From contig NZ_CP028339.1 in assembly GCF_003030465.1 (NCBI RefSeq), positions 1,178,001 to 1,242,000 on the forward strand: a stretch of 64,000 bases of DNA, written 5' to 3'. Position 1 is the first letter of the stretch; each line of letters begins with the position of its first letter. Positions 12,841-35,053 of the stretch are shown here, in pieces. The DNA comes from Thauera aromatica K172. GTDB taxonomy: Bacteria > Pseudomonadota > Gammaproteobacteria > Burkholderiales > Rhodocyclaceae. The position numbers and the translations under genes are program-made. The notes beneath the pieces were generated by a model. That model ran no database searches and was not told the DNA's origin. It worked only from the letters and a program-made list of their open reading frames with translations.

Positions 12841-14091
12841 TCAGTAAGTTTCGACGTGGAAACGGCCCTTGGCCAGCAGTTCCGGGCGCAGGGCTTCCCA
12901 GTCCGTGCCGTGGGCGCGGCAGATGTCGCGGAAGGCTTCGAGGACACCGGCTTCCATGCCCTTCAGGCCGCAGATGTAGATGAAGGCGTTGTCGTCGGTG
13001 AGCATGCGGAACACTTTGTCGGCACGCTCGCGGATGCGGTCCTGGACGTAGCGCTTGGGCTCGTCGGGGACGCGCGAGAAGGCGAAATTGATGTCGATGA
13101 AGTCTTCCGGGAGCTTTTTCAGCGGGCCGAAGTAGGGCAGTTCGCCGGGCGCGCGCGCGCCGAAGAACAGCATCAGCTCGCCGCCTTCTTTCTGCTCCAT
13201 GCGTCGGCGGCGGCGTTCGGTCATCGCCCGCATCGGCGCCGAGCCGGTGCCGGTGCAGATCATCAGCAACGACGAACCCGGGTGGTTGGGCATCAGGAAG
13301 GTCGAACCGTAGGGGCCGGTGACCTGGACCTTGTCGCCTTTTTTCAGATCGCACACGTAATTGGAGGCGATGCCGCGGGCGGGGTGGCCGTCGTGATCTT
13401 CGGTGACGCGCTTGACCGTCAGCGACAGGTTGTTGTGGTGCGGGCGCTCGCCTTCACGCGGGCTGGCCACCGAGTACATGCGCAGCAGGTGGGGCTTGCC
13501 GTTGGCGTCGGTGCCCGGCGGGATGATGCCGATCGACTGGCCTTCGAGGACCGGGAAGGGGGTCGCACCGAAATCGAGGACGATGTGGTGGATGTCGCTG
13601 GAGGCGTCGTCCGCGGTCAGCCGGTAGTTGCCGGAAACCGTGGCGGTGAGCGGCCGGGTGGGGGTGTACAGATTGACGTAGGGGTGGGACGCCGACCACG
13701 GCGCCAGTGCCGGTCCGCCCTGGCCGGCGGTGGCGACGTCGGTGATCTGCTGGACCTCGGGCGGGGTTTCCTCGCCGCTGAGGGCACCCAGGGTGGCCTC
13801 GAAATTGTCGAACTCGGTGGTGTCGGGCAGCGCGTCCCAGGAAAGCTGCTCTTCAATCGTATATGAGCGGGTGCCGTCGACATTGCGCCAGGAGTCGATC
13901 GCGCCGGTCGGACAGGGCGAGATGCAGGCCAGGCAGCCCTTGCAGACGTCGAACTTGACCACGTAGTTGCGGGCGTCGTGCGTGATCGCGTTGATCGGGC
14001 ACATTTCTTCGCAGGTGTTGCAGCGAATGCAGACCTCGGGGTCGATCAGGTGCTGACGGGCGATGGTGGCGTGCTCTGCGGGCGCGTTCAT
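12841..14091 (-). CDS. boxA: Benzoyl-CoA 2,3-epoxidase reductase subunit BoxA
   Basis: A 416-residue iron-sulfur flavoprotein that passes electrons from NADPH to the oxygenase BoxB. An N-terminal two-[4Fe-4S] ferredoxin domain has Cys21/24/27/31 ([12 protein letters not shown]) and Cys50/53/56/60 ([12 protein letters not shown]). A ferredoxin-NADP reductase domain follows: [14 protein letters not shown] for FAD and [14 protein letters not shown] plus [12 protein letters not shown] for NADPH. The chain ends in the aromatic FHVETY usual for this reductase family. The start at 14091 has an AAGGAAGAG site. It is the last gene of boxC-boxB-boxA. Confidence 0.95.
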
Positions 14092-14166
14092 GGCGGGTCT
14101 CTTCCTTGGCGGGTGGAGCGGCAGCGAAGGCGGTGCCGCGGGCGTGTCGATCGTTTCGGCACAAAG

Positions 14167-14193: not shown

Positions 14194-14200
14194 TTCGTGC

Positions 14201-15622
<1,422 letters not shown>

Positions 15623-15646
15623 GTCTCTACTCCTCGATGGGGAATG

Positions 15647-15679: not shown

Positions 15680-15696
15680 TGGGGGTTACATCCGGC

Positions 15697-17361
15697 TTAC
15701 ACCCGGTTCCAGTCGAATTGCGCCTTCTTGCCCGAACCGAACAGCTTCAGCGCGCCGTTTTCGCCGACCGCGTTGGGGCGGATGAAGATCCAGTTCTGCC
15801 ACGCCGACAGGCGGCCGAAGATGCGCGTGTTCATGGTTTCGGCGATGCCGAAGCGCAGGTTGGCTTCCAGCCCGGTGAGCGCATCGGGCGACAGGCTGGC
15901 GCGTTCCTCGCAGGCGATGCGCACTTCGTCGGCCCAGTCGAGGTCGTCCGGGATCGCCGTCACCAGGCCCAGCTCCATCGCCTCGGCTGCGGTGAGCAGC
16001 TCGCCTTTGCGCGCCTTTACCGCCGCCACCGGGCCTTCTTCCTGGTAGAAGCGCGCGGCGATGCGCGACAGGCCGTTGACCATCGGCAGGGGGCCGAAAT
16101 TCATCGCCGTGAGGCCGATGCGGTTGGCGCCGTCCTCGTCGTCGCGCAGGTAGCTGCGGTCGGCGGCAAGGGCGATCTCGAGCAGGGTGCCGGCAAAGCA
16201 CGAGCCCGGCTCGATCAGCGCGTAGAGGCTGCGCGAGGACACGTCCAGACGCGCCAGGGTGCGGCGCAGCATGCCGAGCGTCTCGCGCACGAACCAGTGC
16301 TGCTGGTGGGCGACGAGGGTGGCGTCGATGTCCATCACGACTTCGGTGTCACCTTCGGTGCGCAGCAGCCACAGGCCGATGTCGAGGTGGTTGGTGCGCA
16401 GGTTGAGGATCGCGTCGTCGAGTTCGCGCGCCATCTTCAGCGGCCACCAGTCGGCGCCCTGGGCTTCGATTTCGGCAATCGTGGTCGCGGTGACGGCGGC
16501 CGGGGCGCGCACGGTCAGGGTCACGCTGCGGGCGGCGGCGTCGATCGCGGCATCGACGAATTCGTAGTGGTAGCCGGAGGCATCGACGCTGCGTTCGAGG
16601 GTCGGCAAGGCCACTCCTTTCGCCCCGGCAGGGCGGTCGGAGCCGGCGGCGAGCGCCTGCGCGCGTTCGGCGATGTGCTCGGCGAACTGCTGCTGCTTGA
16701 CCACGGCATCGACCAGGCGCCACTCCACCGCGCGCTTGCCGCGCACGCCTTCGGAGATGGTGCAGAAGATGTCGGCGTGGTCGCGGCGCACCTTGCGCTT
16801 GTCGGTGACCCGGGTCAGCCCGCCGGTGCCCGGCAGCACGCCCAGCAGCGGCACTTCGGGCAGCGACACTGCGGAGTTGCGGTCATCGATGAGCACGATC
16901 TCGTCGCACGCCAGCGCCAGCTCGTAGCCGCCGCCGGCAGTGGTGCCGTTGCACGCGGCGATGAACTTGAGGCCGGAGTACTGGCTGGAATCCTCGATGC
17001 CGTTGCGCGTCTCGTTGGTGAACTTGCAGAAGTTCACTTTCCAGGCGTGGGTGGAGACGCCCAGCATGTAGATGTTGGCGCCGGAGCAGAAGATCTTCGG
17101 CTTGCCCGAAGTGAACACCACGCTGCGCACCGACGGGTGCTCGAAGCGGATGCGCTGGAGCGCGTCGTGCAGTTCGATGTCGACGCCGAGGTCGTAGGAG
17201 TTCAGCTTCAGCTTGTACCCCGGGCGGATGCCGGCGTCTTCATCGATGTTCAGGGTCAGGGTGGCGACTTCGCCGTCCACTGCGAGCGACCAGTGCTTGT
17301 ATCGCGACGGCTCGGTGCGGTAATCGACGGCGTCCTGCTTCACGGTGCTTGCTGTGTCCAC
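15697..17361 (-). CDS. boxC: 2,3-epoxybenzoyl-CoA dihydrolase BoxC
   Basis: A 554-residue enzyme of the crotonase superfamily that opens 2,3-epoxybenzoyl-CoA with two waters to 3,4-dehydroadipyl-CoA semialdehyde and formate. The crotonase core is seen in SGKPKIFCSGANIYMLG and CNGTTAGGGYELALACDEIV (oxyanion-hole region), then SLPEVPLLGVLPGTGGLT. The C-terminal half is a second, diverged crotonase-like segment ending in FGSGKKAQFDWNRV. The start is a GTG at 17361 with a strong GAGGAGGAG site; an upstream in-frame ATG has no such site. It is the first gene of boxC-boxB-boxA and divergent from boxD. Confidence 0.95.
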   Translation of the reverse strand: MDTASTVKQDAVDYRTEPSRYKHWSLAVDGEVATLTLNIDEDAGIRPGYKLKLNSYDLGVDIELHDALQRIRFEHPSVRSVVFTSGKPKIFCSGANIYMLGVSTHAWKVNFCKFTNETRNGIEDSSQYSGLKFIAACNGTTAGGGYELALACDEIVLIDDRNSAVSLPEVPLLGVLPGTGGLTRVTDKRKVRRDHADIFCTISEGVRGKRAVEWRLVDAVVKQQQFAEHIAERAQALAAGSDRPAGAKGVALPTLERSVDASGYHYEFVDAAIDAAARSVTLTVRAPAAVTATTIAEIEAQGADWWPLKMARELDDAILNLRTNHLDIGLWLLRTEGDTEVVMDIDATLVAHQQHWFVRETLGMLRRTLARLDVSSRSLYALIEPGSCFAGTLLEIALAADRSYLRDDEDGANRIGLTAMNFGPLPMVNGLSRIAARFYQEEGPVAAVKARKGELLTAAEAMELGLVTAIPDDLDWADEVRIACEERASLSPDALTGLEANLRFGIAETMNTRIFGRLSAWQNWIFIRPNAVGENGALKLFGSGKKAQFDWNRV

Positions 17362-17482
17362 GTTCGTCTCCTCCTCAAAGGGGTTCGGCCGGGGCGGGGC
17401 CGTTTTGATGCTGAAAGTTTCGTCTGTCTTCCGCTTTTGGGGTGCGGGGTGCTTGGGGCCGCAAATCGCGAGCCGTGGTTGA

Positions 17483-17511
17483 ACAATAGTGCAGCTCGTT
17501 TTTCGAGTCAA
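17483..17511 (-). promoter_or_regulatory. Candidate promoter of boxCBA with TGCA motif in the spacer
   Basis: On the minus strand, TTGACT (17511-17506) and TATTGT (17488-17483) are 17 bases apart. A TGCA at 17490-17493 sits within the spacer and another at 17521-17524 lies just upstream of the -35. Both are positioned for BoxR-type repression. The wider 17362-17751 gap (390 bases) holds this promoter, the opposing boxD promoter and their leaders, and no convincing gene. Confidence 0.6.
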
Positions 17512-17632
17512 CACAAATAATGCACTTTCTTTCTTGTGGCATCTTTTTTTATGCGGCGGATTTCTGTTTTCTCTCCCGCGTTGCTGCCGTATTCTGATCT
17601 AAAGGTTGTTTTGATGCCTTAGATTTAGAGTT

Positions 17633-17679
17633 TGCATGCAAGATATTGCTTGACTCGCAAGGGAATGAAGGTACTCTAT
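17633..17679 (+). promoter_or_regulatory. Candidate boxD promoter and TGCATGCA motif
   Basis: The palindrome TGCATGCA (17633-17640) lies just upstream of TTGACT (17650-17655). A weak -10 follows: TACTCT at 17672-17677 with a 16-base spacer, or CTCTAT at 17674-17679 with an 18-base spacer. Both this promoter and the opposing one begin with TTGACTCG. The TGCA content fits BoxR control. Confidence 0.45.
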
Positions 17680-17751
17680 GAACACATAAAGGCGGCCTCG
17701 GGTTTGGTGGCCAGTGTGGCCCCTGTCACCAAGTACACAATAGGAGACGAC

Positions 17752-19329
<1,578 letters not shown>

Positions 19330-19500
19330 GTCCGGCCCATCTACCCTTGAAGGCAGGGGAAGGCCCCGTCGGCCGGTGGAATGACGCATTCCCGGCGAGG
19401 GGCGGGTGGTGTCGGGCGGTTGCACCCGCCATCGTCCGCCTCGCCCGCCATCGCCGCCCTGCCGGACTTCCCGAGTGTTGCACCTGAAAGGAGTGTCTGC

Positions 19501-19968
19501 ATGACCCCTGAACATTTTCAGCAGCTGATTGCCGGCGTTACCCGTGAAATCGAAGGCCGGGCGCTCGACGCCGCGCTCGCCGATTTCCTCAACCAGCGCT
19601 TTCCGGCCCATGGCGCGGAATTCCGTGCCATTGCCGATGCCTGTGCGCAGGCGGTGGCGGCGGGCTGGATGTGCGAGCGCGAGCACGGAGGGATCCGCTT
19701 CGGCCGGGTCATCAAGCCGTGCCCGGAACTGGCTGGCTTCAGCGTGGACGTGGTGGAAATGGCCGATGTGGCCGGCCCCCACCATGTTCATCCGCAGGGC
19801 GAGATCGACATGATCATGCCGCTCGAAGGCGATGCCAAATTCGACGGCCATGGCGCCGGCTGGTTCGTCTACGGCCCGGGCAGTGCGCACTGTCCGACCG
19901 TCAGCGGCGGGCGTGCTCATGTCCTGTACCTGCTGCCGCAGGGGGCGATCGAGTTCACCCGCCGCTAG
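19501..19968 (+). CDS. DUF4863-type protein (4-hydroxylaminobenzoate lyase-like)
   Basis: A 155-residue protein with a predicted cupin-like second half (VAGPHHVHPQGEIDMIMPLE; GPGSAHCPTVSGGRAHVLYLLP), whose histidines and glutamates could bind a metal. Relatives I recall are annotated as 4-hydroxylaminobenzoate lyase (PnbB-like), but the constant association with box genes suggests another role in benzoyl-CoA catabolism. The start has an AAAGGAG site at 19487-19493. The preceding 171 bases after boxD contain no other gene. I do not assign a reaction. Confidence 0.75.
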   Translation: MTPEHFQQLIAGVTREIEGRALDAALADFLNQRFPAHGAEFRAIADACAQAVAAGWMCEREHGGIRFGRVIKPCPELAGFSVDVVEMADVAGPHHVHPQGEIDMIMPLEGDAKFDGHGAGWFVYGPGSAHCPTVSGGRAHVLYLLPQGAIEFTRR

Positions 19969-22859: not shown

Positions 22860-22979
22860 TCAGGAAAAATATTATACAATCGCGACTGAACTGGAATTCA
22901 CCGTGTTGCCGGTGGAGTCCGAGAAAGCGGCGGGCAGTTCTGCCTGCCATGTAAATGGATGAACCAGGAGGAGAGTCAC

Positions 22980-24161: not shown

Positions 24162-24279
24162 TCGCTGCGTCGATCGCATCGCCTGCGCCGGCCGTGCCGG
24201 CGCAGGGTTTTCCTTCCCACGCACTTTCATCCACCGTATCCCGCCGCCCTGGGCGAGTCCGGGAGGGGGAGGCCCAAGC

Positions 24280-25146
24280 ATGGATTTCGTTTCCTTCCTG
24301 ATCCAGATCCTGAATTCGCTGCAGTACGGACTGCTGCTGTTTCTGGTGGCCAGCGGGCTGACGCTGGTGTTCGGGATCATGGGCATCATCAACCTGGCGC
24401 ACGGCAGCTTCTACATGATCGGCGCCTACATGGCGTTCGCGCTCACCAGCGCGACCGGCAACCTGATGCTGGCGATCGTGCTCGGCATACCGCTGGCGTT
24501 CGCCTTCGGGGCACTGCTCGAGAAGCTGTTGTTCGTGCATCTGTACAAGCGCGACCACCTGCAGCAGGTACTGCTCACCTACGGGCTGATCCTGATCTTC
24601 GAGGAGCTGCGCAGCCTGACCATGGGCGACGACGTGCACGGGGTGGACATCCCGGCGCTGTTCTCGGCCTCGATCCAGCTTTCGGACACTCTGTCCTACC
24701 CGGTCTACCGGATCGTGATCTCGGTGGTGTGTGTGGCCCTGGCCGCCGGGCTGTGGTGGCTGATGCAGCGCACCCGGCTGGGGATGATGATCCGCGCCGG
24801 CTCGCACAACCGCGAGATGGTGCAGGCGCTCGGCGTCAACATCGACCTGCTGTACCGCAACGTGTTCGCCCTCGGCGTGGCGCTGGCCGCGCTCGCCGGC
24901 ATGCTCGCCGCGCCGGTGTCCTCGGTGTATCCGGGGATGGGCGGCAACGTGCTGATCATCTCCTTCGTGGTGGTGGTGATCGGCGGCATCGGCTCGGTGT
25001 GGGGGGCGCTGGTGGCGGCGCTGCTGGTGGGCTTTACCGACACCTTCGGCAAGGTGCTGGTGCCCGAGTTCGCCGGACTGGCGGTGTACCTGGTGATGGC
25101 GGTGGTGCTGCTGTGGCGCCCCGAAGGCATCTTCAAGAAAGGCTAG
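24280..25146 (+). CDS. livH: ABC transporter permease, LivH type
   Basis: A 288-residue inner-membrane permease with about eight hydrophobic segments. FGIMGIINLAHGSFYMIGAY near the N-terminus and VVVVIGGIGSVWGALVAALL near the C-terminus are LivH signatures. It forms the channel with the LivM-type permease. The ATG at 24280 follows a GGGAGGGGG site, and the next gene begins 3 bases after its stop. The family name is used; the substrate is probably aromatic, judged by context. Confidence 0.92.
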   Translation: MDFVSFLIQILNSLQYGLLLFLVASGLTLVFGIMGIINLAHGSFYMIGAYMAFALTSATGNLMLAIVLGIPLAFAFGALLEKLLFVHLYKRDHLQQVLLTYGLILIFEELRSLTMGDDVHGVDIPALFSASIQLSDTLSYPVYRIVISVVCVALAAGLWWLMQRTRLGMMIRAGSHNREMVQALGVNIDLLYRNVFALGVALAALAGMLAAPVSSVYPGMGGNVLIISFVVVVIGGIGSVWGALVAALLVGFTDTFGKVLVPEFAGLAVYLVMAVVLLWRPEGIFKKG

Positions 25147-25149
25147 GCG

Positions 25150-26121
25150 ATGAATTCCAGAATCCCGCTGTTTCTACAACTGCTCGCGCTGCTCGTGCTG
25201 ATCGCCTATCCGCTGTACGGCTCGAGCTTCTACGTCGAGATGCTGGCCAAGACCCTGGTGATGGCGATCTTCGCCATGAGCCTGGCGCTGCTGGTGGGCT
25301 TCACCGGGCTGGTCAGCCTCGGGCATGCGGCGTATTTCGGCATCGCCGCCTACGTCGTGGCGCTGGTGACGCCCAAGTACGACCCGGCCAGCTTCTGGTT
25401 CGCCTTCCCGGCCTCGGTGCTGGCCGCGGCGCTGGCCGCGCTCGTGATCGGGCTGTTCGTGCTGCGCACCAAGGGCATCTACTTCATCATGGTGACGCTG
25501 GCCTTCGCCCAGATGGCCTACTACATCTTCCACGACACCCCGCTGGGCGGAGGCTCGGACGGGATCTACCTGAACTTCAAGCCCGATGCGGCGATTGGTG
25601 GCTGGGTGCCGTTCGACCTGAACGAGCCGCTGCAGATGTACTACTTCATCCTCGCGGCGATGGTGGCGGTGTTCGTGCTCTTGAAGCTGGTGCTGCGTTC
25701 GCCGTTCGGGCGCGTGCTCGCGGGCATCCACAGCAACGAGCACCGCATGCAGTCGCTGGGCTACGCCACCTTCCGCTACAAGCTCGCCGCATTCACGCTG
25801 GCCGGCGCGCTGGCCGGGGTGGCGGGCTTCCTGTACGCGGTGCTGTTCGGCTTCGTCACCCCCGAGTACCTGTCGTGGCACCAGTCGGGCAACGTGCTGA
25901 TGATGGTGATCCTGGGCGGCATGGGTAGCCTGGCGGGGGCGGCGGCCGGGGCGTTCGCCTTCATCGGCCTGCAGGAGCTATTCACCGACCTGAGCAAGCA
26001 CTGGCAGCTGCTGATGGGCAGCGTGATCGTGCTCGCGGTGCTGTTCATGCCGGACGGGCTGGCCGGGCTGCCCAAGCGGGTGATCCGCATGATCAACTGG
26101 GGAGAGGACAAAAATGGCTGA
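25150..26121 (+). CDS. livM: ABC transporter permease, LivM type
   Basis: A 323-residue permease of the branched-chain-type ABC family with about nine membrane segments. LLVGFTGLVSLGHAAYFGIA and GVAGFLYAVLFGFVTPEYLSWHQSG are characteristic. The gene overlaps the ATPase gene downstream by 8 bases, which points to translational coupling. It pairs with the LivH-type permease just upstream. Confidence 0.92.
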   Translation: MNSRIPLFLQLLALLVLIAYPLYGSSFYVEMLAKTLVMAIFAMSLALLVGFTGLVSLGHAAYFGIAAYVVALVTPKYDPASFWFAFPASVLAAALAALVIGLFVLRTKGIYFIMVTLAFAQMAYYIFHDTPLGGGSDGIYLNFKPDAAIGGWVPFDLNEPLQMYYFILAAMVAVFVLLKLVLRSPFGRVLAGIHSNEHRMQSLGYATFRYKLAAFTLAGALAGVAGFLYAVLFGFVTPEYLSWHQSGNVLMMVILGGMGSLAGAAAGAFAFIGLQELFTDLSKHWQLLMGSVIVLAVLFMPDGLAGLPKRVIRMINWGEDKNG

Positions 26122-26869
26122 GGCAATGCTCGTGGCCGACCGCCTGACCCGCCACTTCGGCGGGCTGACGGCCAACGAAGAAGTGTGCATCACGCTCGAG
26201 CGCGGCACCCTGCATGCCTTGCTCGGCCCCAACGGCGCGGGCAAGTCGACCTGCATCAACATGCTCTCGGGCGATCTGCCGCCCTCGTCCGGGCGCATCC
26301 TGCTCGGCGGCCGGGACGTCACCCGGCTGTCGGCGGCGGCGCGCTCGCACCTGGGGATCGGACGCAGCTACCAGCGCACGAACATCTTCCCGCAGTTCAC
26401 CGTGCTCGAGAATTGCCGCCTGGCAGCGCAGTCGCGCCGGCCGCGGCCGTGGAAGATCTTCACCGACGCCCAGCGCCTGAGCGACACCGTCGAGCGCGCG
26501 CGCGCGGCGGTCGCCGAGGCCGGGTTGGGCGGGCGCGAGGCGCGGGTGGCGGGCACGCTGTCGCACGGCGAGCAGCGCCAGCTCGAGATCGCGATGGTGC
26601 TGGCGACCGACGCCAGGGTGCTGCTGCTCGACGAGCCGCTGGCGGGCATGGGCTCGGAGGAGTCGGCGAAGATGGTCGAGCTGCTGCGCAGGCTCAAGGA
26701 CGGGCGTGCGATCCTGCTCGTCGAGCACGACATGGATGCGGTGTTTGCGGTCGCCGACACGATCACGGTGATGGTCAACGGCGCGGTGCTCGAATCGGGC
26801 CCGCCGGTGCAGATCCGCAACAGCGCCGAAGTGCAGGCCGCTTACCTGGGAGAGGACGAACATGTCTGA
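26114..26869 (+). CDS. livG: ABC transporter ATPase, LivG type
   Basis: A 251-residue ATP-binding subunit. The Walker A is GPNGAGKSTCIN, the signature LSHGEQRQLEIAM, the Walker B VLLLDEPLAGMG, and the switch histidine is in VEHDMDAVF. The ATG at 26114 has a GGAGAGG site inside the end of the LivM-type gene, and its own end overlaps the next ATPase gene by 8 bases. It energises uptake together with the LivF-type ATPase. Confidence 0.93.
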   Translation: MAEAMLVADRLTRHFGGLTANEEVCITLERGTLHALLGPNGAGKSTCINMLSGDLPPSSGRILLGGRDVTRLSAAARSHLGIGRSYQRTNIFPQFTVLENCRLAAQSRRPRPWKIFTDAQRLSDTVERARAAVAEAGLGGREARVAGTLSHGEQRQLEIAMVLATDARVLLLDEPLAGMGSEESAKMVELLRRLKDGRAILLVEHDMDAVFAVADTITVMVNGAVLESGPPVQIRNSAEVQAAYLGEDEHV

Positions 26870-27575
26870 GACGCTGCTCGAAGCGCACGACCTGCACACT
26901 TATTACGGTTCGAGCCACATCCTGCACGGCGTCGATTTCCACATCGCGAAGGGTGAGGCGCTGGGGCTGATGGGGCGCAACGGCATGGGCAAGACCACGC
27001 TGATCCGCTCGATGCTCGGGCTGGTGCGTCCGCGCCACGGCACGGTCAAGGTCAATGGCGACGACATGACCGGGGCGAGCACGCACCGCATCGCCCTGCG
27101 CGGCATTGCCTACGTGCCCGAGGGGCGGGGAATCTTCCCCAACCTGAGCGTGCGCGAGAACCTGATCATGGCCGCGCGCGCCGGCGTCGACGGTCAGCGC
27201 ACGTGGACCTTCGAGCGCGTGATGGAGACCTTCCCGCGCCTGGGCGAGCGCCTGTCGAACGGCGGCGGGCAGCTCTCGGGGGGCGAGCAGCAGATGCTCA
27301 CCATCGGCCGCGCGCTGATGACCAACCCCGACCTGCTGATCCTGGACGAAGCCACCGAGGGCCTGGCGCCGCTGATGGTGAAGGAGATCTGGAACGTGGT
27401 CCGCACCATCCGCGAAACCGGCATCGCCACCGTGATCGTGGACAAGAACCACGCCGCGGTGACCGCGCTCACCGACCGCTCGATGATCCTGGTCAAGGGC
27501 CAGGTCGTCTTCGACGGCCCGAGCGCGGCGGTGCGCAACGACCCGGAATTGATCCAGAAGCATCTCGGCGTCTGA
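26862..27575 (+). CDS. livF: ABC transporter ATPase, LivF type
   Basis: A 237-residue second ATPase of the heterodimer. The Walker A is GRNGMGKTTLIRSM, the signature LSGGEQQMLTIGRAL and the Walker B LLILDEATEGLAP. The residue after Walker B is Asp-Glu as required. The usual switch histidine position reads VDKNHAAV, as is common in LivF proteins. It ends the transporter genes; the hydrolase gene starts 86 bases later. Confidence 0.92.
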   Translation: MSETLLEAHDLHTYYGSSHILHGVDFHIAKGEALGLMGRNGMGKTTLIRSMLGLVRPRHGTVKVNGDDMTGASTHRIALRGIAYVPEGRGIFPNLSVRENLIMAARAGVDGQRTWTFERVMETFPRLGERLSNGGGQLSGGEQQMLTIGRALMTNPDLLILDEATEGLAPLMVKEIWNVVRTIRETGIATVIVDKNHAAVTALTDRSMILVKGQVVFDGPSAAVRNDPELIQKHLGV

Positions 27576-27661
27576 AAATAACACGCAGGGGGCCGCCCAC
27601 CGGGCCGGCTCCCGCACCGGCCGCCCGCCAAGGGCGGCACCCCAAACGGAGTTTGTTCACG

Positions 27662-28435
27662 ATGAAGACAGTCGGTATCGGCGGCACCCGCCTCGAATAC
27701 GTCCGATTGCCCTCGGCACATCCGCGCGAGGGCGCCCCCGCGATCGTTTTCCTCCACGAAGGGCTGGGCTCGGTGGCGATGTGGCGCGATTTTCCGCAGC
27801 GCGTGGCCGATGCGACCGGATGCGAGGCCATCGTCTATTCGCGCGCCGGCTACGGCCGCTCCGACCCGGCGCCGCTGCCGCGCACGGTGCGCTACATGCA
27901 CGACGAAGGGCTGACGGTGCTGCCGGCGCTGCTCGCCGAACTCGGTGTCGAGCGCCCGCTGCTGTTCGGGCACTCGGACGGCGGCTCGATCGCGCTGATC
28001 TGCGCCGGCGGGACCGACGTTGCGCTCTCCGGGCTGATCCTGATGGCGCCGCACGTGATGGTCGAGGACATCTCGGTCGCCAGTATTGCCGCCGCCGGGC
28101 AGGCGTGGACCACGACCGACCTGCCGTCCCGGCTGGGGCGCTACCACAACGACGTCGAGGCGGCCTTTCGCGGCTGGAACGACATCTGGCTGCACCCGGA
28201 TTTCCGCGCCTGGAACATCGAGCAATATCTGCCAGGCATCACCGTGCCGGTGCTCGCGATCCAGGGCGAGGACGACGAGTACGGCACCATGACGCAGATC
28301 GAGCGCATCGCCGCCCAGGCGCGCGACGTCGAACTATGCCGGCTCGCCGATTGCCGGCATTCGCCGCACAAGGACCAGCCGCAGGCGGTGCTCGACACCG
28401 TCGCCGCGTTTGTCGAGCGCGTGCTCGAAGACTGA
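27662..28435 (+). CDS. Alpha/beta hydrolase
   Basis: A 257-residue alpha/beta hydrolase. The nucleophile elbow is FGHSDGGSIAL (Ser), the HG-type oxyanion region is FLHEGLGSVAMW, and the late acid and histidine are seen in GEDDEYGT and CRHSPHKDQP. Similar hydrolases occur in box clusters. A hydrolysis of a side-product lactone or CoA ester would fit, but the substrate is not known. It follows the transporter operon on the same strand and precedes the rubredoxin gene. Confidence 0.8.
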   Translation: MKTVGIGGTRLEYVRLPSAHPREGAPAIVFLHEGLGSVAMWRDFPQRVADATGCEAIVYSRAGYGRSDPAPLPRTVRYMHDEGLTVLPALLAELGVERPLLFGHSDGGSIALICAGGTDVALSGLILMAPHVMVEDISVASIAAAGQAWTTTDLPSRLGRYHNDVEAAFRGWNDIWLHPDFRAWNIEQYLPGITVPVLAIQGEDDEYGTMTQIERIAAQARDVELCRLADCRHSPHKDQPQAVLDTVAAFVERVLED

Positions 28436-28583: not shown

Positions 28584-28751
28584 ATGGCCCAATACCAGTG
28601 CAGTGCATGCTATTTCCCTTACGATGAGGCCGAAGGCCTGCCCGAACATGGCATCCCTGCCGGGACGCGGTGGGAGGATGTGCCGGCCGATTTCGTCTGT
28701 CCCGACTGCGGCACGCCGAAGTCGAACTGGATGGAACTGAACACCGACTGA
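28584..28751 (+). CDS. Rubredoxin
   Basis: A 55-residue one-iron electron carrier. The two knuckles are YQCSACYFPYDEAEG and FVCPDCGTPKSNW, with four Cys ligands, and RWEDVPADF between them is the usual middle motif. It was placed at 28584 by its ATG and the GGAGAGTC-type site. It stands between the hydrolase and PaaH-type genes inside the benzoate region, with no obvious rubredoxin reductase or hydroxylase beside it. Its redox partner is unknown. Confidence 0.9.
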   Translation: MAQYQCSACYFPYDEAEGLPEHGIPAGTRWEDVPADFVCPDCGTPKSNWMELNTD

Positions 28752-28820
28752 ACCGGGCTTCACGGGGGGCGTCAGCCGCACCCCGGAGGCTTTTCCCGAG
28801 TCCCCTTTTTGGAGATGGAC

Positions 28821-30350
28821 GTGGCAGCACTTTCGACCTCGACCCGCATCGCCGTCATCGGCGCCGGCGCCATGGGCAGCGGCATCGCCCACGTGGCGGC
28901 CCGCGCCGGCCACACGGTTTATCTGTACGACATGAACGCGGAGGCGGTTGCGCGCGGCCGCGACGCGATCGGCAAGGACCTGCGCTTTCTCGTCGGCAAG
29001 GGCAAGCTCGCCGCAGCCGAAGCCGAGGCGGTGCTGGCGCGGGTGATCGGCAGCAGCCGCATCGAGGATCTCGCCGATGCCGGTCTGCTGATCGAGGCCA
29101 TCGTCGAGAACCTCGAGGTCAAGCAGAAGCTGTTCCGCCAGCTCGAAGAGCTGGCCGGACCGCAGGCGATCCTCGCCACCAACACCTCGTCGCTGTCGAT
29201 CACCGCGATGGCTGCGGTGCTGGCACGCCCGGAGCGGCTGGCCGGAATGCACTTCTTCAACCCGGCGCCGCGCATGGCGCTGGTCGAGATCGTCTCCGGC
29301 CTCGCCACCGACCCCGAGGTCGCGGGCACGCTGTACGACACCGCGAAGGCCTGGGGCAAGACTCCGGTGCATGCGAGCTCGACGCCGGGCTTCATCGTCA
29401 ACCGCGTCGCTCGTCCTTATTACGCCGAGGCCCAGCGCGTGCTCGCCGAGCGTGCCGCCGCCCCGGCGACGCTGGATGCGGTGCTGCGCGAAGCCTGCGG
29501 CTTCCCGATGGGGCCGTTCGAGCTGATGGACCTGATCGGCCACGACGTCAATTACGCGGTGACGAATTCGGTGTTCGATGCCTACCATGGCGACCGCCGC
29601 TACACCCCGAGTCTGATCCAGCGCGAGCTGGTGCTGGCCGGGCGCCTCGGGCGCAAGTCGGGGCAGGGTTTCTACGACTACCGCGACGGAGCGGAAAAAC
29701 CGGCGCCGGCGGCGGAGCCCGCGGCGGCGGCGCTGCCGGCGCTCGTGGTCCACGGCCGCCTCGGCGTGGCCGAGCCGCTGGTGGCGCGTCTCCAGCAGGC
29801 CGGCATCGCCGTCGAGCGCAGCGCGGCGAGCGCGGCCGAGGGGGGCGGCGAGCTGCGCATCGGCACGGCGCGCCTGGCCCTGTCCGACGGCCGCACCGCC
29901 ACCCGGCGGGCGCACGAGGAAGGGACGCCGGAGCTGGTGCTGTTCGATCTCGCGCGCGACTACGCGAGCACGCCACGCCTGGCGCTGGCCCGTGCCGACC
30001 AGTGCAGCGATTCCGCCTGGCAGGCAGTGGTCGGCACCCTGCAGGCGGCCGGGATCGCGCTCAGCCGGGTCGACGACGTCGCCGGTCTGGTGGCGCTGCG
30101 CACGGTGTGCATGCTCGCCAACGAAGCCGCCGACTGCGTGCTGCAGGGCATCGCCACTGCGGCCGACATCGATACCGCGATGCGCAACGGCACCAACTAC
30201 CCGGAAGGGCCGCTGGCCTGGGCCGACCGCCTCGGCACGCCCTTCGTCGCCCGCGTGCTGGAGAATCTGCGTGCGCATTACGGCGAGGAGCGTTATCGTC
30301 TATCTCCGCTGATCGCCCGCCGCGCCCTGACCGGCGCCACCCTGCACTGA
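28821..30350 (+). CDS. paaH: 3-hydroxyacyl-CoA dehydrogenase, PaaH type (3-hydroxyadipyl-CoA)
   Basis: A roughly 509-residue NAD-dependent enzyme. The N-terminal Rossmann fold begins RIAVIGAGAMGSGIAHVAAR; the catalytic region is MHFFNPAPRMALVEIV and STPGFIVNRVARPYY. A second, shorter 3HCDH C-terminal domain (about 400-500) gives the two-domain PaaH/PaaC length. It should oxidise 3-hydroxyadipyl-CoA after hydration of dehydroadipyl-CoA, completing the box route toward 3-oxoadipyl-CoA. GTG 28821 is six bases after a GGAG site; ATG 28815 is an alternative start but too close to that site. An alanine-rich linker lies at about 295-310. The partner hydratase and thiolase are not in the window. Confidence 0.85.
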   Translation: MAALSTSTRIAVIGAGAMGSGIAHVAARAGHTVYLYDMNAEAVARGRDAIGKDLRFLVGKGKLAAAEAEAVLARVIGSSRIEDLADAGLLIEAIVENLEVKQKLFRQLEELAGPQAILATNTSSLSITAMAAVLARPERLAGMHFFNPAPRMALVEIVSGLATDPEVAGTLYDTAKAWGKTPVHASSTPGFIVNRVARPYYAEAQRVLAERAAAPATLDAVLREACGFPMGPFELMDLIGHDVNYAVTNSVFDAYHGDRRYTPSLIQRELVLAGRLGRKSGQGFYDYRDGAEKPAPAAEPAAAALPALVVHGRLGVAEPLVARLQQAGIAVERSAASAAEGGGELRIGTARLALSDGRTATRRAHEEGTPELVLFDLARDYASTPRLALARADQCSDSAWQAVVGTLQAAGIALSRVDDVAGLVALRTVCMLANEAADCVLQGIATAADIDTAMRNGTNYPEGPLAWADRLGTPFVARVLENLRAHYGEERYRLSPLIARRALTGATLH

Positions 30351-30430: not shown

Positions 30431-30470
30431 CCCCGTGCGCAGCCCGGCAACCTGCTCCGAGGAGAGCCCC

Positions 30471-32234
30471 ATGTCTGCCCGTTCCGCGATGCGCGGACCT
30501 ACCCGTCCGCCGCTGTCCGAAACCGCGCGTGACGCCGCGCGCGCCGCGCTTGCCGGCGAGGCGCCGCGCCGCGACCGCCTGATCGAATACCTCCACCGCC
30601 TGCAGGACGCGCACGGCGCGCTCCACGCCGGGCACCTCGCCGCGCTTGCCGAAGCGCTGCAACTGGCGCGCGCCGAAGTGTTCGAGGTCGCGACCTTCTA
30701 CCACCACTTCGACTTCGTTGCCGAGGGCGGCGCCGCCCCGCCGGCGCTCACCGTGCGCGTGTGCGATTCGCTCGGCTGTGCGATGGCGGGCGGGGCGGAA
30801 CTCGCCGCCGCGCTCGCGACGCGGCTCGGTGCTGGGGTGCGGGTGCAGCGCGTGCCCTGTGTCGGGCGCTGCGACAGTGCGCCGGTCGCGGTGGTCGGGC
30901 AGCGCCCGGTGCTGCACGCCGATGTCGACACCGTCGCCGCGGTCGTTGCCAGCGGCGAGCGCGAAGAAGCGCTGCCCGCTGCGATCCGCTTCGACGCCTA
31001 CCGCGCCGCCGGCGGCTATGCGCTGTGGGAAGCGGTGCGCAGCGGCGCGCGCGATCCCGCGTCGATCGTCGCCGCGCTCGACGAGGCCGGCCTGCGCGGG
31101 CTGGGCGGCGCAGGCTTTCCCGCCGCGCGCAAGTGGCGCACGGTCGCGGCGCAGCCGGCGCCGCGCCACATGGCGGTGAATATCGACGAAGGCGAGCCGG
31201 GGACCTTCAAGGATCGCCACTACCTGTCGACCGATCCGCACCGTTTCATCGAAGGCATGCTGATCGCCGCCCGGGTGGTCGGCATCGCCGCGATCTGGAT
31301 CTATATCCGCGACGAATACCCGGCGCTGCGCCGCCTCCTCGCCGAGGAACTCGAGCGCGTGCGCGCCGAATGGCCGGAGCTGCCGCCGATCGAACTGCGC
31401 CGCGGCGCCGGCGCCTACGTCTGCGGCGAAGAGTCGGCGATGATCGAGTCGATCGAAGGCAAGCGCGGCATGCCGCGGCTGCGTCCGCCCTATGTCGCCG
31501 AAGTCGGCCTGTTCGGCCGTCCGACGCTGGAGCACAACCTCGAGACGCTGTGGTGGGTGCGCGATATTGTCGACATGAGCGCCGAGCGCGGCGCCGACGG
31601 GTTTGCGAGCCACGGCCGCCACGGCCGCAAGGGCCTCCGGAGCTTCTCGGTCAGCGGCCGCGTGGCCCGGCCCGGAGTCGTCGTCACCGATGCCGGCATC
31701 ACCCTGCGCGAGCTCATCGACGAGCACTGCGGCGGCATGCTCCCCGGCCACGAACTGTACGGCTACTTTCCCGGCGGCGCCTCGGGCGGCATCCTGCCGG
31801 CGCGGCTGGCCGATGTGCCGCTCGATTTCGACACCCTGGCGCCCTACGGCTGCTTCATCGGCTCGGCCGCGATCGTGGTGTTCTCGCAGCACGACCAGGC
31901 ACGCCTCCTCGCCGAAAACGCGATGGCCTTCTTCGCCCATGAATCCTGCGGCCAGTGCACGCCGTGCCGGGTCGGCACGGCGAAGGCGGCGCAGCTGATG
32001 CAGGCGCCCGCGTGGGACGCCGGCCTGCTCACCGAACTCGGCAGGACGATGATGGACGCTTCGATCTGCGGCCTCGGCCAGGCCGCGCCGAACCCGATGC
32101 AGTCGGTGCTGCGCTTCTTCCCGCACGAAGTCGGAGGCGCGCGCGCTGGCGCTGCAGGGGGTGCCTCGCCGACGGCCCCCGATGCCTGCGCCGCCCCTCC
32201 GGCGCCGCATGCAGACGACACGAGGAGCGCATGA
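30471..32234 (+). CDS. fdsB: NAD-dependent formate dehydrogenase, diaphorase subunit (NuoE-NuoF fusion)
   Basis: A 587-residue fusion. Residues about 15-150 are NuoE-like (thioredoxin-type [2Fe-2S], with VFEVATFYHHFDF, CDSLGCAM and CVGRCDSAP ligands). The rest is NuoF-like: GLGGAGFPAARKW for NADH, INIDEGEPGTFKDRHY-like FMN loop (here VNIDEGEPGTFKDRHY), and the [4Fe-4S] ligands ESCGQCTPCRVG plus a later Cys in SICGLGQ. It accepts electrons from the formate-oxidising subunit and reduces NAD+. The ATG at 30471 follows GAGGAGAG. Its stop overlaps the next start (ATGA). The two-subunit arrangement differs from systems with a separate gamma subunit. Confidence 0.88.
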   Translation: MSARSAMRGPTRPPLSETARDAARAALAGEAPRRDRLIEYLHRLQDAHGALHAGHLAALAEALQLARAEVFEVATFYHHFDFVAEGGAAPPALTVRVCDSLGCAMAGGAELAAALATRLGAGVRVQRVPCVGRCDSAPVAVVGQRPVLHADVDTVAAVVASGEREEALPAAIRFDAYRAAGGYALWEAVRSGARDPASIVAALDEAGLRGLGGAGFPAARKWRTVAAQPAPRHMAVNIDEGEPGTFKDRHYLSTDPHRFIEGMLIAARVVGIAAIWIYIRDEYPALRRLLAEELERVRAEWPELPPIELRRGAGAYVCGEESAMIESIEGKRGMPRLRPPYVAEVGLFGRPTLEHNLETLWWVRDIVDMSAERGADGFASHGRHGRKGLRSFSVSGRVARPGVVVTDAGITLRELIDEHCGGMLPGHELYGYFPGGASGGILPARLADVPLDFDTLAPYGCFIGSAAIVVFSQHDQARLLAENAMAFFAHESCGQCTPCRVGTAKAAQLMQAPAWDAGLLTELGRTMMDASICGLGQAAPNPMQSVLRFFPHEVGGARAGAAGGASPTAPDACAAPPAPHADDTRSA

Positions 32235-35053
32235 TGAACGCCACCGACCGGATCCGCTTCGAGCTCGACGGCCGTGACATCGACGCCGCCCCCGGAGAGT
32301 CGATCCTGCAGGCCGCGCGGCGCGCCGGCACGGACATCCCGCACCTGTGCTACACGGACGGGCTGCGCGCCGACGGCAACTGCCGCGCCTGCGTGGTCGA
32401 GATCGACGGCGAGCGTGTGCTTGCCCCCTCATGCTGCCGCGCGCCCCAGCCGGGGATGAAGGTGAAGGCCGCAAGCGAACGCGCGCGCGCCTCGCAGCGC
32501 ATGGTGCTGGAGCTGCTGCGCGCCGACGTGCCGGCTGCAGCCGAGAAGAGCGACTCCGAACTTGCGCACTGGTGCGAGGCGCTCGGCGTCGTGGAGCCCC
32601 GCTTCACGCCCCGTACCAACCCCACGCCCGATCGCAGCCACCCCGGCATCGCCGTCGATTTCGCTGCCTGCATCCAGTGCACGCGCTGCCTGCGCGCCTG
32701 CCGCGAGGAGCAGGTGAATGACGTGATCGGCCTCGCCCGCCGCGGTGCCGATACCGCGATCGTGTTCGATTTCGGCGACCCGATGGGGGATTCGAGCTGC
32801 GTCGGCTGCGGCGAATGCGTCCAGGCCTGCCCGACCGGCGCGCTGCTGCCGGCGACGCTGCTCGATGTCGCCGTTGCGCCGGCGTCGGCCGCCTACCGTC
32901 CGACCCGGCAGGTCGATTCCCTGTGCCCCTACTGCGGCGTCGGCTGCCAGGTGAGCTACCACGTCGCCGGCGAGGGCGCGGCGCAGCGCATCGTCTTCGC
33001 CGAGGGGAGCGACGGCCCGGCCAACGCCGGCCGCCTGTGCGTGAAGGGGCGCTACGGCTTCACCTACAGCCGCAACCGCGAGCGCCTGACCACGCCGCTG
33101 ATCCGCCGTCCGGAAGTGCCCAAGGGGACGGTGGTCGATCCGGCCGATCCGCTGTCCGCATTCCGCGCGGCGAGCTGGGACGAAGCGCTCGACGCCGCCG
33201 CCGCCGGACTGCTGCGGATCCGGCATGCCCACGGCCCGCACGCGCTTGCCGGCTTCGGTTCGGCCAAGGGCAGCAACGAAGAGGCCTACCTGTTCCAGAA
33301 GCTGGTGCGGACCGGCTTCGGCACCCACAACGTGGACCACTGCACGCGCCTGTGCCACGCCTCTTCGGTGGCGGCGCTGCTCGAAGGCATCGGCTCGGGC
33401 GCGGTGTCCAATCCAGTGCGCGACGTCGACTTCGCCGACGTGATCATCGTCATCGGCGCCAATCCGGCGGCCAACCACCCGGTGGCGGCGAGCTTCATCA
33501 AGAACGCGGTGAGGGGTGGCAACCGCGGTGGCAACCGCGAGGGCAATCGCGAGGGCAATCGCGAGGACAACCGCGGCGGCGCGAAACTGGTGCTGATGGA
33601 CCCGCGTGCGACCCCGCTCGCGCGCCATGCCTGGCGCGTGCTGCAGTTCCGCGCCGACGCCGATGTCGCCCTGCTGCTGTCGATGGCGTGCACGATCATC
33701 GAGGAAAGGCTCACCGACGCGGCCTTCATCGCCGCCCGCACCGAAGGCTTCGAAGCTTTCCGCGAGGTCGCGCTGAAGTACCCGCCCGAGCGCACCGAGG
33801 CCCTCACCGGCATCGCCGCCGCCACCGTGCGCGAGGTCGCGCGTGCCTACGCGCGCGGGCCGAACAGCATGATCCTGTGGGGGATGGGGGTGTCGCAGCA
33901 CACCCATGGCACCGACAACGTGCGCGCGCTGATCGCGCTGGCGCTGATGACCGGCCAGATCGGCCGCCGCGGCACCGGCCTGCACCCGCTGCGCGGCCAG
34001 AACAACGTCCAGGGCGCCTCCGACGCCGGCCTTATCCCGATGATGCTGCCCGACTACCAGAAGGTGGCCGATCCCGCCGTGCGGGCGCGCTTCGAGGCAC
34101 TGTGGCAGGCGCCGCTGGCGCAGACTCCCGGCCTCACCGTGGTCGAGATCATCGATGCCGCCTGCGCCGGGCAGATCCGCGGCATGTACATCGAAGGCGA
34201 GAACCCGGCGATGTCCGACCCCGATCTCGCCCATGCGCGCGAAGGCCTGGCGAAGCTCGAGCACCTCGTGGTGCAGGACATCTTCCTGACCGAGACCGCG
34301 ATGCTCGCCGACGTCGTGCTGCCGGCTTCGAGCCTGTTCGAGAAGAGCGGCAGCTTCACCAACACCGACCGCCTGGTGCAGCTCGCGCGTCCGGTGCTGC
34401 CGCTGCCGGGCGGGGCCCGCCCGGACTGGTGGATCATCCAGGAGATCGCCCGCCGGATGGGGCTGGCGTGGGATTACCCCGGCCCGGGGGCGGTGTTCGA
34501 CGAGCTCGTGCGGGCGATGCCCAGCCACGGCGGGATGAGCTGGGCGAAGCTGGAGGCCGAGGGCGCGATCGTGGCGCCGAAAGTCGCTCCCGATGCGCCG
34601 TCCGAGCCGGTGCTGTTTCAGGAGTGCTTTCCGACCGCCAACGGGCGCGGCCGCTTCGTGGCGGTGACGCCGTTGCCGGCGGCGGAGCTGCCCGATGAGG
34701 ACTACCCGATGGTGCTGATCACCGGGCGTGTGCTCGAACACTGGCACACGGGGTCGATGACGCGCCGCGCTGAGGTGCTCGATGCGCTCGACCCGGACCC
34801 CTGGTGCGCGATCCATCCGGCCGATCTCGCCCGTCTCGGCGTCGCCGCGGGCGGGCGGGTGGCGCTGCAGACCCGGCGCGGGCGCATCGAGCTGGAGGCG
34901 AGGGCGGACGAGGGCGTGCGCACCGGCAGCGTGTTCATGGCGTTCTGCTACCGCGAGGCGGCGGCCAACCTGCTGACCCAGCCCGCGCTCGACCCTTTCG
35001 GCAAGATCCCGGAGTTCAAGTATTGCGCGCTGCGGGTCGAGGCCGTGCCCTGA
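32231..35053 (+). CDS. fdsA: NAD-dependent formate dehydrogenase, catalytic alpha subunit
   Basis: A 940-residue molybdopterin oxidoreductase. In order: a NuoG-like [2Fe-2S] domain (CYTDGLRADGNCRACVVEID), a His-Cys cluster segment, two [4Fe-4S] motifs (CIQCTRCLRAC and CVGCGECVQACPTGA), a further [4Fe-4S] motif CPYCGVGCQVSYH, the molybdopterin domains and a C-terminal Molydop-binding domain. The metal ligand is Cys in HNVDHCTRLCHASSV, where other enzymes have selenocysteine. The start may be ATG 32231 or 32234. A tandem insertion of five 12-base units lies at 33515-33574. No maturation genes (fdhD, fdsC or fdsD) are adjacent. Confidence 0.9.
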   Translation: MMNATDRIRFELDGRDIDAAPGESILQAARRAGTDIPHLCYTDGLRADGNCRACVVEIDGERVLAPSCCRAPQPGMKVKAASERARASQRMVLELLRADVPAAAEKSDSELAHWCEALGVVEPRFTPRTNPTPDRSHPGIAVDFAACIQCTRCLRACREEQVNDVIGLARRGADTAIVFDFGDPMGDSSCVGCGECVQACPTGALLPATLLDVAVAPASAAYRPTRQVDSLCPYCGVGCQVSYHVAGEGAAQRIVFAEGSDGPANAGRLCVKGRYGFTYSRNRERLTTPLIRRPEVPKGTVVDPADPLSAFRAASWDEALDAAAAGLLRIRHAHGPHALAGFGSAKGSNEEAYLFQKLVRTGFGTHNVDHCTRLCHASSVAALLEGIGSGAVSNPVRDVDFADVIIVIGANPAANHPVAASFIKNAVRGGNRGGNREGNREGNREDNRGGAKLVLMDPRATPLARHAWRVLQFRADADVALLLSMACTIIEERLTDAAFIAARTEGFEAFREVALKYPPERTEALTGIAAATVREVARAYARGPNSMILWGMGVSQHTHGTDNVRALIALALMTGQIGRRGTGLHPLRGQNNVQGASDAGLIPMMLPDYQKVADPAVRARFEALWQAPLAQTPGLTVVEIIDAACAGQIRGMYIEGENPAMSDPDLAHAREGLAKLEHLVVQDIFLTETAMLADVVLPASSLFEKSGSFTNTDRLVQLARPVLPLPGGARPDWWIIQEIARRMGLAWDYPGPGAVFDELVRAMPSHGGMSWAKLEAEGAIVAPKVAPDAPSEPVLFQECFPTANGRGRFVAVTPLPAAELPDEDYPMVLITGRVLEHWHTGSMTRRAEVLDALDPDPWCAIHPADLARLGVAAGGRVALQTRRGRIELEARADEGVRTGSVFMAFCYREAAANLLTQPALDPFGKIPEFKYCALRVEAVP
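33515..33574 (+). repeat. Five 12-base tandem repeats inside fdsA
   Basis: The units GGTGGCAACCGC (two), GAGGGCAATCGC (two) and GAGGACAACCGC encode [G/E][G/D]NR tetrapeptides. They are in frame and interrupt the segment between IKNAVRG and AKLVLMD, a surface loop region of the Mo-bis-MGD domain. They probably arose by slippage. Confidence 0.85.

What the first reader, a model, noticed from the sequence alone, without database searches (positions are those of the whole stretch)
12841..35053. Formate dehydrogenase encoded directly behind the box pathway closes the formate balance
BoxC releases one formate per benzoyl-CoA. Immediately after the transporter and PaaH-type genes, on the same strand, lies a complete NAD-linked formate dehydrogenase (30471-35053). 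This would turn a waste product into NADH and offset the NADPH used by BoxAB. The gene order is seen; the metabolic coupling is inference from the known BoxC reaction. With malate synthase next, the region reads as a benzoate-to-central-metabolism module.
Basis: partly seen in the sequence, partly recalled or inferred. Interest (0 to 1): 0.7.

Follow-up and report, generated by a model that had tools for sequence, protein, structure and literature searches.

The report
Formate dehydrogenase beside box benzoate genes
A bacterium that appears to be a Thauera carries a formate-oxidising enzyme near its oxygen-dependent benzoate-breakdown genes, a pairing already predicted in print that seems to have arisen more than once, but here it is loose and in the closest relative a large chromosomal inversion separates the two.

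Summary
The genes are real and the coordinates are right. 30471-35053 encodes a two-subunit FDH of the Methylorubrum FDH1 type (FdhB, a fused FdsG-FdsB, plus FdhA), not canonical fdsGBACD. "Directly behind the box pathway" is loose: boxABC lie on the minus strand about 13 kb away, with boxD, a ligase, an IS1595 element, a duplicated ABC transporter, rubredoxin and paaH between.

That this FDH oxidises BoxC formate was already proposed for Azoarcus EbN1 and BH72 (PMC6449761). Comparison supports it: 7 of 23 family genomes with both genes have them within 17 kb; outside the family 6 of 36 within 15 kb, three with boxCBA-fdhBA on one strand (6 bp apart in one). Box-linked FdhA falls in separate clades (AU p 0.012 and 2.6e-5), so recruitment probably happened at least twice.

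Against the tidy reading: in closest relative G200 box and fdh lie 1.24 Mb apart. Flanks show a ~2.4-Mb inversion between two inverted transporter copies; the window's box-to-fdh path crosses ~3.1 kb identical to the second copy. In the loci fetched, malate synthase joins fdh in four same-genus genomes, two without box. No BoxR-type site precedes fdh. BoxD returns NADPH more directly.

The parts
9319..9927 (-). homologue of a gene kept with box genes, probably the hemerythrin/HHE-type gene of PMC6449761 (no family search run on it)
   Evidence: conserved near box genes in relatives; naming from PMC6449761
9967..10941 (-). boxR-like XRE regulator, displaced from its usual place beside boxC
   Evidence: 46-80% identical to the gene next to boxC in relatives; not scanned by HMM
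11125..11140 (+). only TGCA-N6-TGCA (BoxR-type) site in the window, upstream of ligase 1 (start about 11166)
   Evidence: 3 mismatches to the published consensus; about one N6 match is expected by chance (mean 1.15)
11166..12749 (+). benzoate-CoA ligase family gene 1
   Evidence: TIGR02262 930.8 bits
12841..14091 (-). boxA
   Evidence: TIGR03224 753.4 bits vs cut-off 459.2
14201..15622 (-). boxB
   Evidence: TIGR03225 923.3 bits vs 499.1
15697..17514 (-). boxC, releases formate (ORF; true start probably further in)
   Evidence: TIGR03222 1000.5 bits vs 712.3
17632..19329 (+). boxD-type aldehyde dehydrogenase
   Evidence: PF00171 212.4 bits, conserved divergent to boxR-boxC in relatives
19381..19968 (+). 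PF16155 protein of box clusters
   Evidence: PF16155 188.2 bits
20165..21763 (+). benzoate-CoA ligase family gene 2 (79% identical to gene 1)
   Evidence: TIGR02262 887.6 bits
21802..22874 (+). IS1595-type element between ligase 2 and the transporter
   Evidence: PF12762/PF12760, imperfect terminal inverted repeats, absent at this place in G200
22865..27575 (+). branched-chain/urea-type ABC transporter (SBP, two permeases, two ATPases); copy A of an inverted repeat, copy B at own C1:3608099-3612716(-)
27569..28435 (+). alpha/beta hydrolase (the lactonase position of box clusters)
   Evidence: PF12697 57.6 bits
28584..28751 (+). rubredoxin-like 55-aa protein (named by eye)
   Evidence: conserved in box-fdh clusters; no HMM scan
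28815..30350 (+). paaH, 3-hydroxyadipyl-CoA dehydrogenase
   Evidence: TIGR02279 788.7 bits vs 669.4
30471..32234 (+). fdhB: fused diaphorase subunit (FdsG-FdsB) of NAD-type formate dehydrogenase
32231..35053 (+). fdhA: catalytic subunit, metal-ligand Cys375 (TGC codon at 33353)
   Evidence: TIGR01591 695.5 bits
35249..37432 (+). malate synthase G; neighbour of fdh, not part of the box module
   Evidence: PF01274 221.8 bits; distribution

Best explanation
The window holds an aerobic box benzoyl-CoA cluster and, about 13 kb away on the arm that carries boxD, benzoate-CoA ligase, transporter and paaH, a two-subunit FDH1-type formate dehydrogenase. Shown: gene content, order, conserved catalytic residues, recurrent linkage in relatives. 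Inferred: BoxC releases one formate per benzoyl-CoA, and FdhBA, in the cytosol, oxidises it to CO2 and passes the electrons through Fe-S clusters and FMN to NAD+, giving NADH for respiration and preventing formate build-up. The FDH behaves as a portable formate-disposal unit: elsewhere it sits beside oxalyl-CoA decarboxylase/formyl-CoA transferase or glutathione-formaldehyde genes, and it joined box clusters more than once. In this genus the physical tie depends on an inversion between two inverted transporter copies, so co-transcription with box is not assured.
For: HMM and domain calls (4, 5, 11). Nearest solved enzyme is Methylorubrum extorquens FDH1, aligned over nearly the whole of both subunits (660.9 and 1188.4 bits). 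Its W-ligand Cys436 aligns with Cys375, and NADH-site residues F232, K237 and E334 are kept. FdhD is elsewhere in the genome. Family linkage: 7 of 23 genomes with both genes within 17 kb, 2 more at 46-47 kb. Three different intermediate layouts keep fdh in the cluster. Outside the family: 6 of 36 genomes with both, three as boxC-boxB-boxA-fdhB-fdhA on one strand, with the furthest-upstream in-frame ATG of fdhB 6, 162 and 178 bp behind boxA's stop. Same-strand cases in named bins: Comamonadaceae (6 bp), Betaproteobacteria MAG30 (62), Burkholderiaceae Hainich (152), Hydrogenophaga (about 1.5 kb). AU tests reject one clade for the Rhodocyclaceae group with either outside group (p 0.012 and 2.6e-5). 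Other formate-forming neighbours confirmed by NCBIfam on representatives.
Against: Closest relative G200 has fdh 1.24 Mb from box. 16 of 39 BoxC genomes in the family lack this FDH type at 55% identity or more. G103 and G204 keep fdh without BoxC. Aromatoleum evansii KB740 shows no box gene within 10 kb of fdh. No BoxR-type site or sigma-70-like promoter near fdh. Gaps of about 150 bp (hydrolase-rubredoxin) and 120 bp (paaH-fdhB), plus an IS element, lie in the arm. No expression or activity data. The two outside groups are not separated from each other (p 0.056), and the AU groups were fixed after a tree had been seen.
Confidence: 0.72

Rival explanations
1. Chance neighbour: fdh is an ancestral locus of the genus tied to malate synthase, and box became its neighbour by recombination in the duplicated transporter; there is no coupling specific to box.
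For: G103 and G204 have fdh-malate synthase between the same flanks without BoxC; G200 has them apart with the exchange point in the transporter repeat.
Against: G200's separated fdh still carries hydrolase-rubredoxin-paaH in the order seen in intact clusters of other genera, so the linked state looks older. Outside the family fdhBA can lie right behind boxA.
Confidence: 0.2
2. General formate or formaldehyde disposal: FdhBA serves formate from several sources (C1 compounds, oxalate, box) and is constitutive; proximity to box adds little.
For: The same enzyme family sits by oxalate genes (5 genomes), glutathione-formaldehyde genes (2) and PQQ-dehydrogenase-type surroundings (about 6, mostly by shared small genes) in the family.
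Against: Excess of box linkage over uniform placement and same-strand boxCBA-fdhBA layouts.
Confidence: 0.3
3. The box-fdh join in this genome is an assembly error in the ~3.1-kb stretch shared by the two transporter copies.
For: Own copies A and B are 100.0% identical over the last ~3.1 kb, and the G200 arrangement is the alternative join.
Against: The chromosome is one 3.66-Mb contig; four other genomes have the same linked order.
Confidence: 0.08

Closest known systems
Box benzoate clusters with formate dehydrogenase FdhBA, predicted by Suvorova and Gelfand 2019 (PMC6449761; passages read)
   Same: FdhBA near the lactonase end of the box cluster; the proposed role, oxidising BoxC formate, is the same
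   Different: They report it for Azoarcus EbN1 (co-transcription possible) and BH72 (near, gap too large). Here there is a transporter duplication, an IS1595 element and an inversion that parts the genes in a close relative; linkage outside Rhodocyclaceae is added
Methylorubrum extorquens FDH1 (MeFDH1; 7e5z, 7vw6, 8j83); Cupriavidus FdwAB is described as a dimeric tungsten NAD-type FDH too (PMC2842291, passages)
   Same: heterodimer with fused diaphorase beta subunit; metal-ligand Cys; nearly full-length alignment of both subunits to MeFDH1
   Different: Metal unknown here; K351 of the NADH site is Arg; FdhA carries a repeat insert of about 20 aa. FdwAB was not compared by sequence
Canonical FdsGBACD (Cupriavidus, Rhodobacter)
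   Same: NAD-type FDH architecture
   Different: FdsG and FdsB are separate there, in a five-gene fds cluster; sequence much further (262.7 and 568 bits)

Membership tests
box aerobic benzoyl-CoA cluster | BoxA, BoxB and BoxC above curated cut-offs | tested here: met
box aerobic benzoyl-CoA cluster | boxR, boxD, benzoate-CoA ligase, lactonase and transporter in the cluster | tested here: met
   boxR by homology to the gene beside boxC only, and displaced
FDH1-type (MeFDH1) formate dehydrogenase | two subunits, beta fused from NuoE-like and NuoF-like parts | tested here: met
FDH1-type (MeFDH1) formate dehydrogenase | metal-ligand Cys436 and NADH-site residues F232, K237, E334, K351 | tested here: met
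   Cys375 and three of four NADH-site residues identical; K351 is Arg (read from alignments; residue numbers from PMC10869683)
FDH1-type (MeFDH1) formate dehydrogenase | tungsten cofactor and NAD+ reduction by formate | not testable with these tools
   needs protein
FDH1-type (MeFDH1) formate dehydrogenase | FdhD needed for maturation is encoded in the genome (MoeA1 and MobB not searched) | tested here: met
   C1:119138, 224.5 bits over the cut-off 140.9
canonical FdsGBACD | separate fdsG and fdsB, with fdsC/fdsD in the operon | tested here: not met
   fused gene; malate synthase follows; FdhD/FdsC-type genes elsewhere; FdsD not searched
BoxR regulon | BoxR-type site (TGCA-N6-TGCA) directly upstream of fdh | tested here: not met
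   none before fdh; looser candidates at 17479 and 17636 by boxC/boxD
BoxR regulon | co-transcription with the box arm and benzoate induction | not testable with these tools
   needs RNA

The most novel reading that the evidence does not exclude
The two inverted, partly identical transporter copies act as a reversible chromosomal switch: a 2.4-Mb inversion places fdhBA either behind the aerobic box arm or behind the second transporter copy, whose neighbours look (by eye) like anaerobic aromatic genes, so members of this genus can rewire whether formate oxidation is expressed with aerobic or anaerobic benzoate use.
Probability: 0.07. Interest if true: 0.75.

Novelty: new member of a known kind. 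Interest (0 to 1): 0.4.

Why it matters
It turns a brief printed prediction (FDH handles BoxC formate) into a comparative case: the same enzyme type was probably added to box clusters at least twice, once or more directly behind boxA, and elsewhere to oxalate and formaldehyde genes. It also shows why adjacency in one genome is a weak basis for a module: in the closest relative the tie is broken by an inversion between duplicated transporter genes. Practically, formate is a cheap, measurable readout of aerobic benzoyl-CoA degradation.

Tried and rejected
Malate synthase as part of the module: rejected (beside fdh only in own, G200, G103, G204 among the loci fetched; G217's cut fdhB was not fetched). 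BoxR control of fdh: no TGCA-N6-TGCA site upstream of fdh in the window or close to fdh in the 13 relative loci scanned. Promoter/terminator scan 27-36 kb: no promoter-like site (0.4 expected), two terminator-like sites (2.8 expected), one inside malate synthase and one on the minus strand. Fold of the paaH-fdhB gap: z -0.33, not unusual. The second high-scoring NuoE/NuoF-type fusion of the genome (C1:2122395) reads by eye as HoxF-like, so it was not counted as a second FDH. Canonical FdsA-type hits in the 74 order genomes (34 places, 37-41% identity): 0 within 15 kb of boxC, most on other contigs of draft genomes. AU tests: one row (BetaMAG30) had been put in the wrong group, which spoils three of the four tests; only the fourth (all box-linked groups in one clade, p 7.5e-5) stands, and repeats the pairwise ones with corrected groups and their sister rows (0.012, 2.6e-5, 0.056). 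The FdhB tree dropped G048's short piece (58 of 59 places kept). Papers seen as passages only: PMC6449761, PMC10869683, PMC4782131, PMC9765128 (the word 'formate' does not occur), PMC5987411, PMC6880542, PMC2842291; PMC13197769 as abstract and start; all others as search listings. PMC5987411 (Pandoraea on kraft lignin) lists BoxA and BoxB as found only on lignin and several FDH subunits with positive ratios there, but says nothing of gene linkage in the passages seen. Searches for earlier reports. Gene calls in relatives came from a crude GC-position caller and tblastn with window proteins, so neighbours without a window homologue were named by eye unless one search covered them.
Full report
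OBSERVATION. The window is C1:1178001-1242000 of a 3.71-Mb genome in two contigs. boxA 12841-14091, boxB 14201-15622 and boxC 15697-17514 are above their NCBIfam cut-offs and lie on the minus strand. On the plus strand follow a boxD-type aldehyde dehydrogenase, a PF16155 protein, a second benzoate-CoA ligase, an IS1595-type element, an ABC transporter, an alpha/beta hydrolase, a rubredoxin-like gene (by eye), paaH, fdhB, fdhA and malate synthase G. The finding's coordinates for FDH are right. fdhB starts about 13 kb from boxC and on the other strand, so 'directly behind' is true only for the plus-strand arm.

WHAT THE ENZYME IS. FdhB is one polypeptide with 2Fe-2S thioredoxin-like, FMN, SLBB and 4Fe-4S parts. 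In the PDB the nearest chains are Methylorubrum extorquens FDH1 beta (660.9 bits, residues 27-561 of 587) and alpha (1188.4 bits, 7-936 of 940). The NAD-dependent FDH beta subunit 6vw7 gives 262.7 and the FDH alpha subunit 6tg9 568 bits (that these two are from Cupriavidus and Rhodobacter is recalled). The paper on MeFDH1 names Cys436 as metal ligand and F232, K237, K351 and E334 as NADH-site residues (PMC10869683, passages). By the alignments these correspond to Cys375, to identical residues for F, K and E, and to Arg for K351. FdhD, needed for MeFDH1 (abstract of PMC13197769), is encoded elsewhere (C1:119138). So this is FDH1-type FdhBA, not fdsGBACD; the metal cannot be told.

RELATIVES IN THE FAMILY. 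Of 199 family genomes (own included), 39 have BoxC above cut-off, 56 have this FdhB at 55% identity or more, in 59 places, and 23 have both (Fisher p 6e-6, not corrected for relatedness). In 7 of 23 (own, G100, G137, G026, G086, G115, G180) boxC and fdhB lie 8-16 kb apart, in all seven divergent; in G044 and G167 they are 46-47 kb apart; the other 14 are far apart or on different contigs. G065, whose boxC is cut by a contig end and is below the cut-off, has boxR, rubredoxin, fdhB and fdhA beside boxC. Three layouts keep fdh in the cluster: the long one with transporter and paaH (G026, G086, G115, G180), a shorter one (G100, G137), and G065. On the FdhB tree (58 rows) the linked rows sit in one 17-row clade with 8 linked rows; the others in it have no BoxC or have it elsewhere.

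THE GENUS. BoxC is in 3 of 29 genus genomes; this FDH family is in 15 of 29, 5 of them at 79% identity or more, one of these cut by a contig end. The three with BoxC: own (linked), G203 (no FDH of this type), G200 (FdhB 96% identical, 1.24 Mb from box if the contig is circular). G103 and G204 have fdh-malate synthase between the same flanks as the window but no BoxC; G103 has a phenol 2-monooxygenase-type gene there.

THE INVERSION. G200 has the box arm ending in one transporter copy at 1.17 Mb, and hydrolase-rubredoxin-paaH-fdh-malate synthase behind a second, inverted copy at 3.66 Mb. The own genome also has two inverted copies: window 22865-27575 and C1:3608099-3612716 (97%). The livF-side flanks are exchanged: own copy B runs into what follows copy A in G200 (a 16.7-kb match at 96%, the copy included). 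On the SBP side own copy B leads, after 8 kb with no close match at that place, into DNA 96% identical to G200 3.697 Mb, which in G200 lies about 28 kb beyond its copy B (16 kb of those 28 kb were searched in the own genome: a 0.7-kb piece elsewhere at 94%, the rest 87% or less and mostly near 70%). This is what a 2.4-Mb inversion between the copies predicts. Own copies A and B are 100.0% identical over the last ~3.1 kb (400-base blocks) and 89-99% before it, so recent exchange, or an assembly choice, is possible there. Four genomes of other genera have the linked order, so linked is taken as ancestral (inference).

OUTSIDE THE FAMILY. In 399 genomes of the order 76 have BoxC at E <= 1e-150, 74 of them outside the family. 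Of these 74, 36 have FDH1-type FdhA (58% identity or more), and in 6 of the 36 it lies within 15 kb of boxC (0.25 expected for uniform placement): G258, G449, G507 (boxC-boxB-boxA-fdhB-fdhA on one strand) and G414, G443, G343 (divergent, 10-14.5 kb). The furthest-upstream in-frame ATG of fdhB lies 178 bp (G258), 6 bp (G449) and 162 bp (G507) behind boxA's stop (start codons not proven). Canonical FdsA hits (34 places) were linked in none. Of 213 relatives found in the named collection the best 80 were kept; box genes lie within 10 kb of fdh in 7 of these 80: Aromatoleum buckelii, A. anaerobium, a Rhodocyclaceae MAG, and Betaproteobacteria, Burkholderiaceae, Comamonadaceae and Hydrogenophaga bins, the last four with box and fdh on one strand. 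Aromatoleum evansii KB740 shows none within 10 kb. On the FdhA trees linked rows fall in three places. Holding the Rhodocyclaceae group with the G258 group is rejected at p 0.012 and with the G449 group at 2.6e-5; the two outside groups together are not rejected (0.056) (groups fixed after a first tree). So probably at least two recruitments.

OTHER CONTEXTS. Near other fdh loci of the family lie formyl-CoA transferase and oxalyl-CoA decarboxylase (G006, G034, G092, G119; G040 transferase, its second gene cut), class III alcohol dehydrogenase with S-(hydroxymethyl)glutathione synthase (G073, G121), a PQQ-dependent dehydrogenase (G009; G005, G028, G070, G118, G182 only by shared small genes), and FdhD-like genes (G018, G038, G079, G158; the one tested scores 125.4, under the cut-off 140.9) (one representative of each tested by HMM, the rest by blastp clusters). 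Many loci have no such neighbour.

HOW IT WORKS. Shown: genes, order, residues, recurrence. Inferred: BoxC formate is oxidised in the cytosol to CO2 with NADH formed. The NADPH argument is weak: BoxD is described as NADP-specific in a passage of PMC4782131 and would return NADPH directly, whereas MeFDH1 is assayed with NAD+.

REGULATION. The published BoxR motif is TGCA-N6-TGCA (PMC6449761). The window has one such site, upstream of ligase 1, about the number expected by chance; looser candidates flank boxC/boxD; none is near fdh. Whether fdh is read from the box arm is open.

NOVELTY. Suvorova and Gelfand 2019 (PMC6449761, passages) already state that FdhBA in Azoarcus EbN1 may belong to the BoxR regulon and oxidise BoxC formate, and that the genes lie near box in BH72. 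In searches, which cover open-licence papers only and of which I read passages of six papers and listings of the rest, I saw no report of the boxCBA-fdhBA layout outside Rhodocyclaceae or of the inversion; an earlier report elsewhere is not excluded.

Noticed in passing
own C1:1491135-1492778 (L035) and G200 C1:2426997-2428640: A second boxC (88% identical to the window's protein) with no boxA or boxB in the fetched 20 kb; the closest relative has one too.
   Followed up: partly
window 22865-27575 and own C1:3608099-3612716: Duplicated inverted ABC transporter operon, 100.0% identical over about 3.1 kb, at the ends of a 2.4-Mb inversion relative to G200.
   Followed up: yes
window 30471-35053: FdhBA looks mosaic: FdhB and the first ~150 aa of FdhA are nearest to Aromatoleum-type genomes (87-92%), the end of FdhA nearer to same-genus and other genomes.
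   Followed up: partly
window about 33512-33580: FdhA has a repeat insert of about 20 aa (GGNRGGNREGN...) absent from MeFDH1 and the six relatives aligned; G200 has a shorter, different version.
   Followed up: partly
window 28584-28751: Rubredoxin-like gene present in all eight box-fdh clusters of the family examined, and in G044's box cluster (L034) from which fdh is 46 kb away; role unknown.
   Followed up: partly
window 9967-12749: boxR lies beyond a second benzoate-CoA ligase on the far side of boxA, here and in G200; in the other relatives read it sits next to boxC.
   Followed up: partly
own C1:2122395: NuoE-NuoF-type fusion resembling HoxF of an NAD-reducing hydrogenase (by eye).
   Followed up: no
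window 43994-45700: Two neighbouring short-chain-dehydrogenase-like genes about 72% alike in DNA, resembling acetoacetyl-CoA reductases by eye.
   Followed up: no
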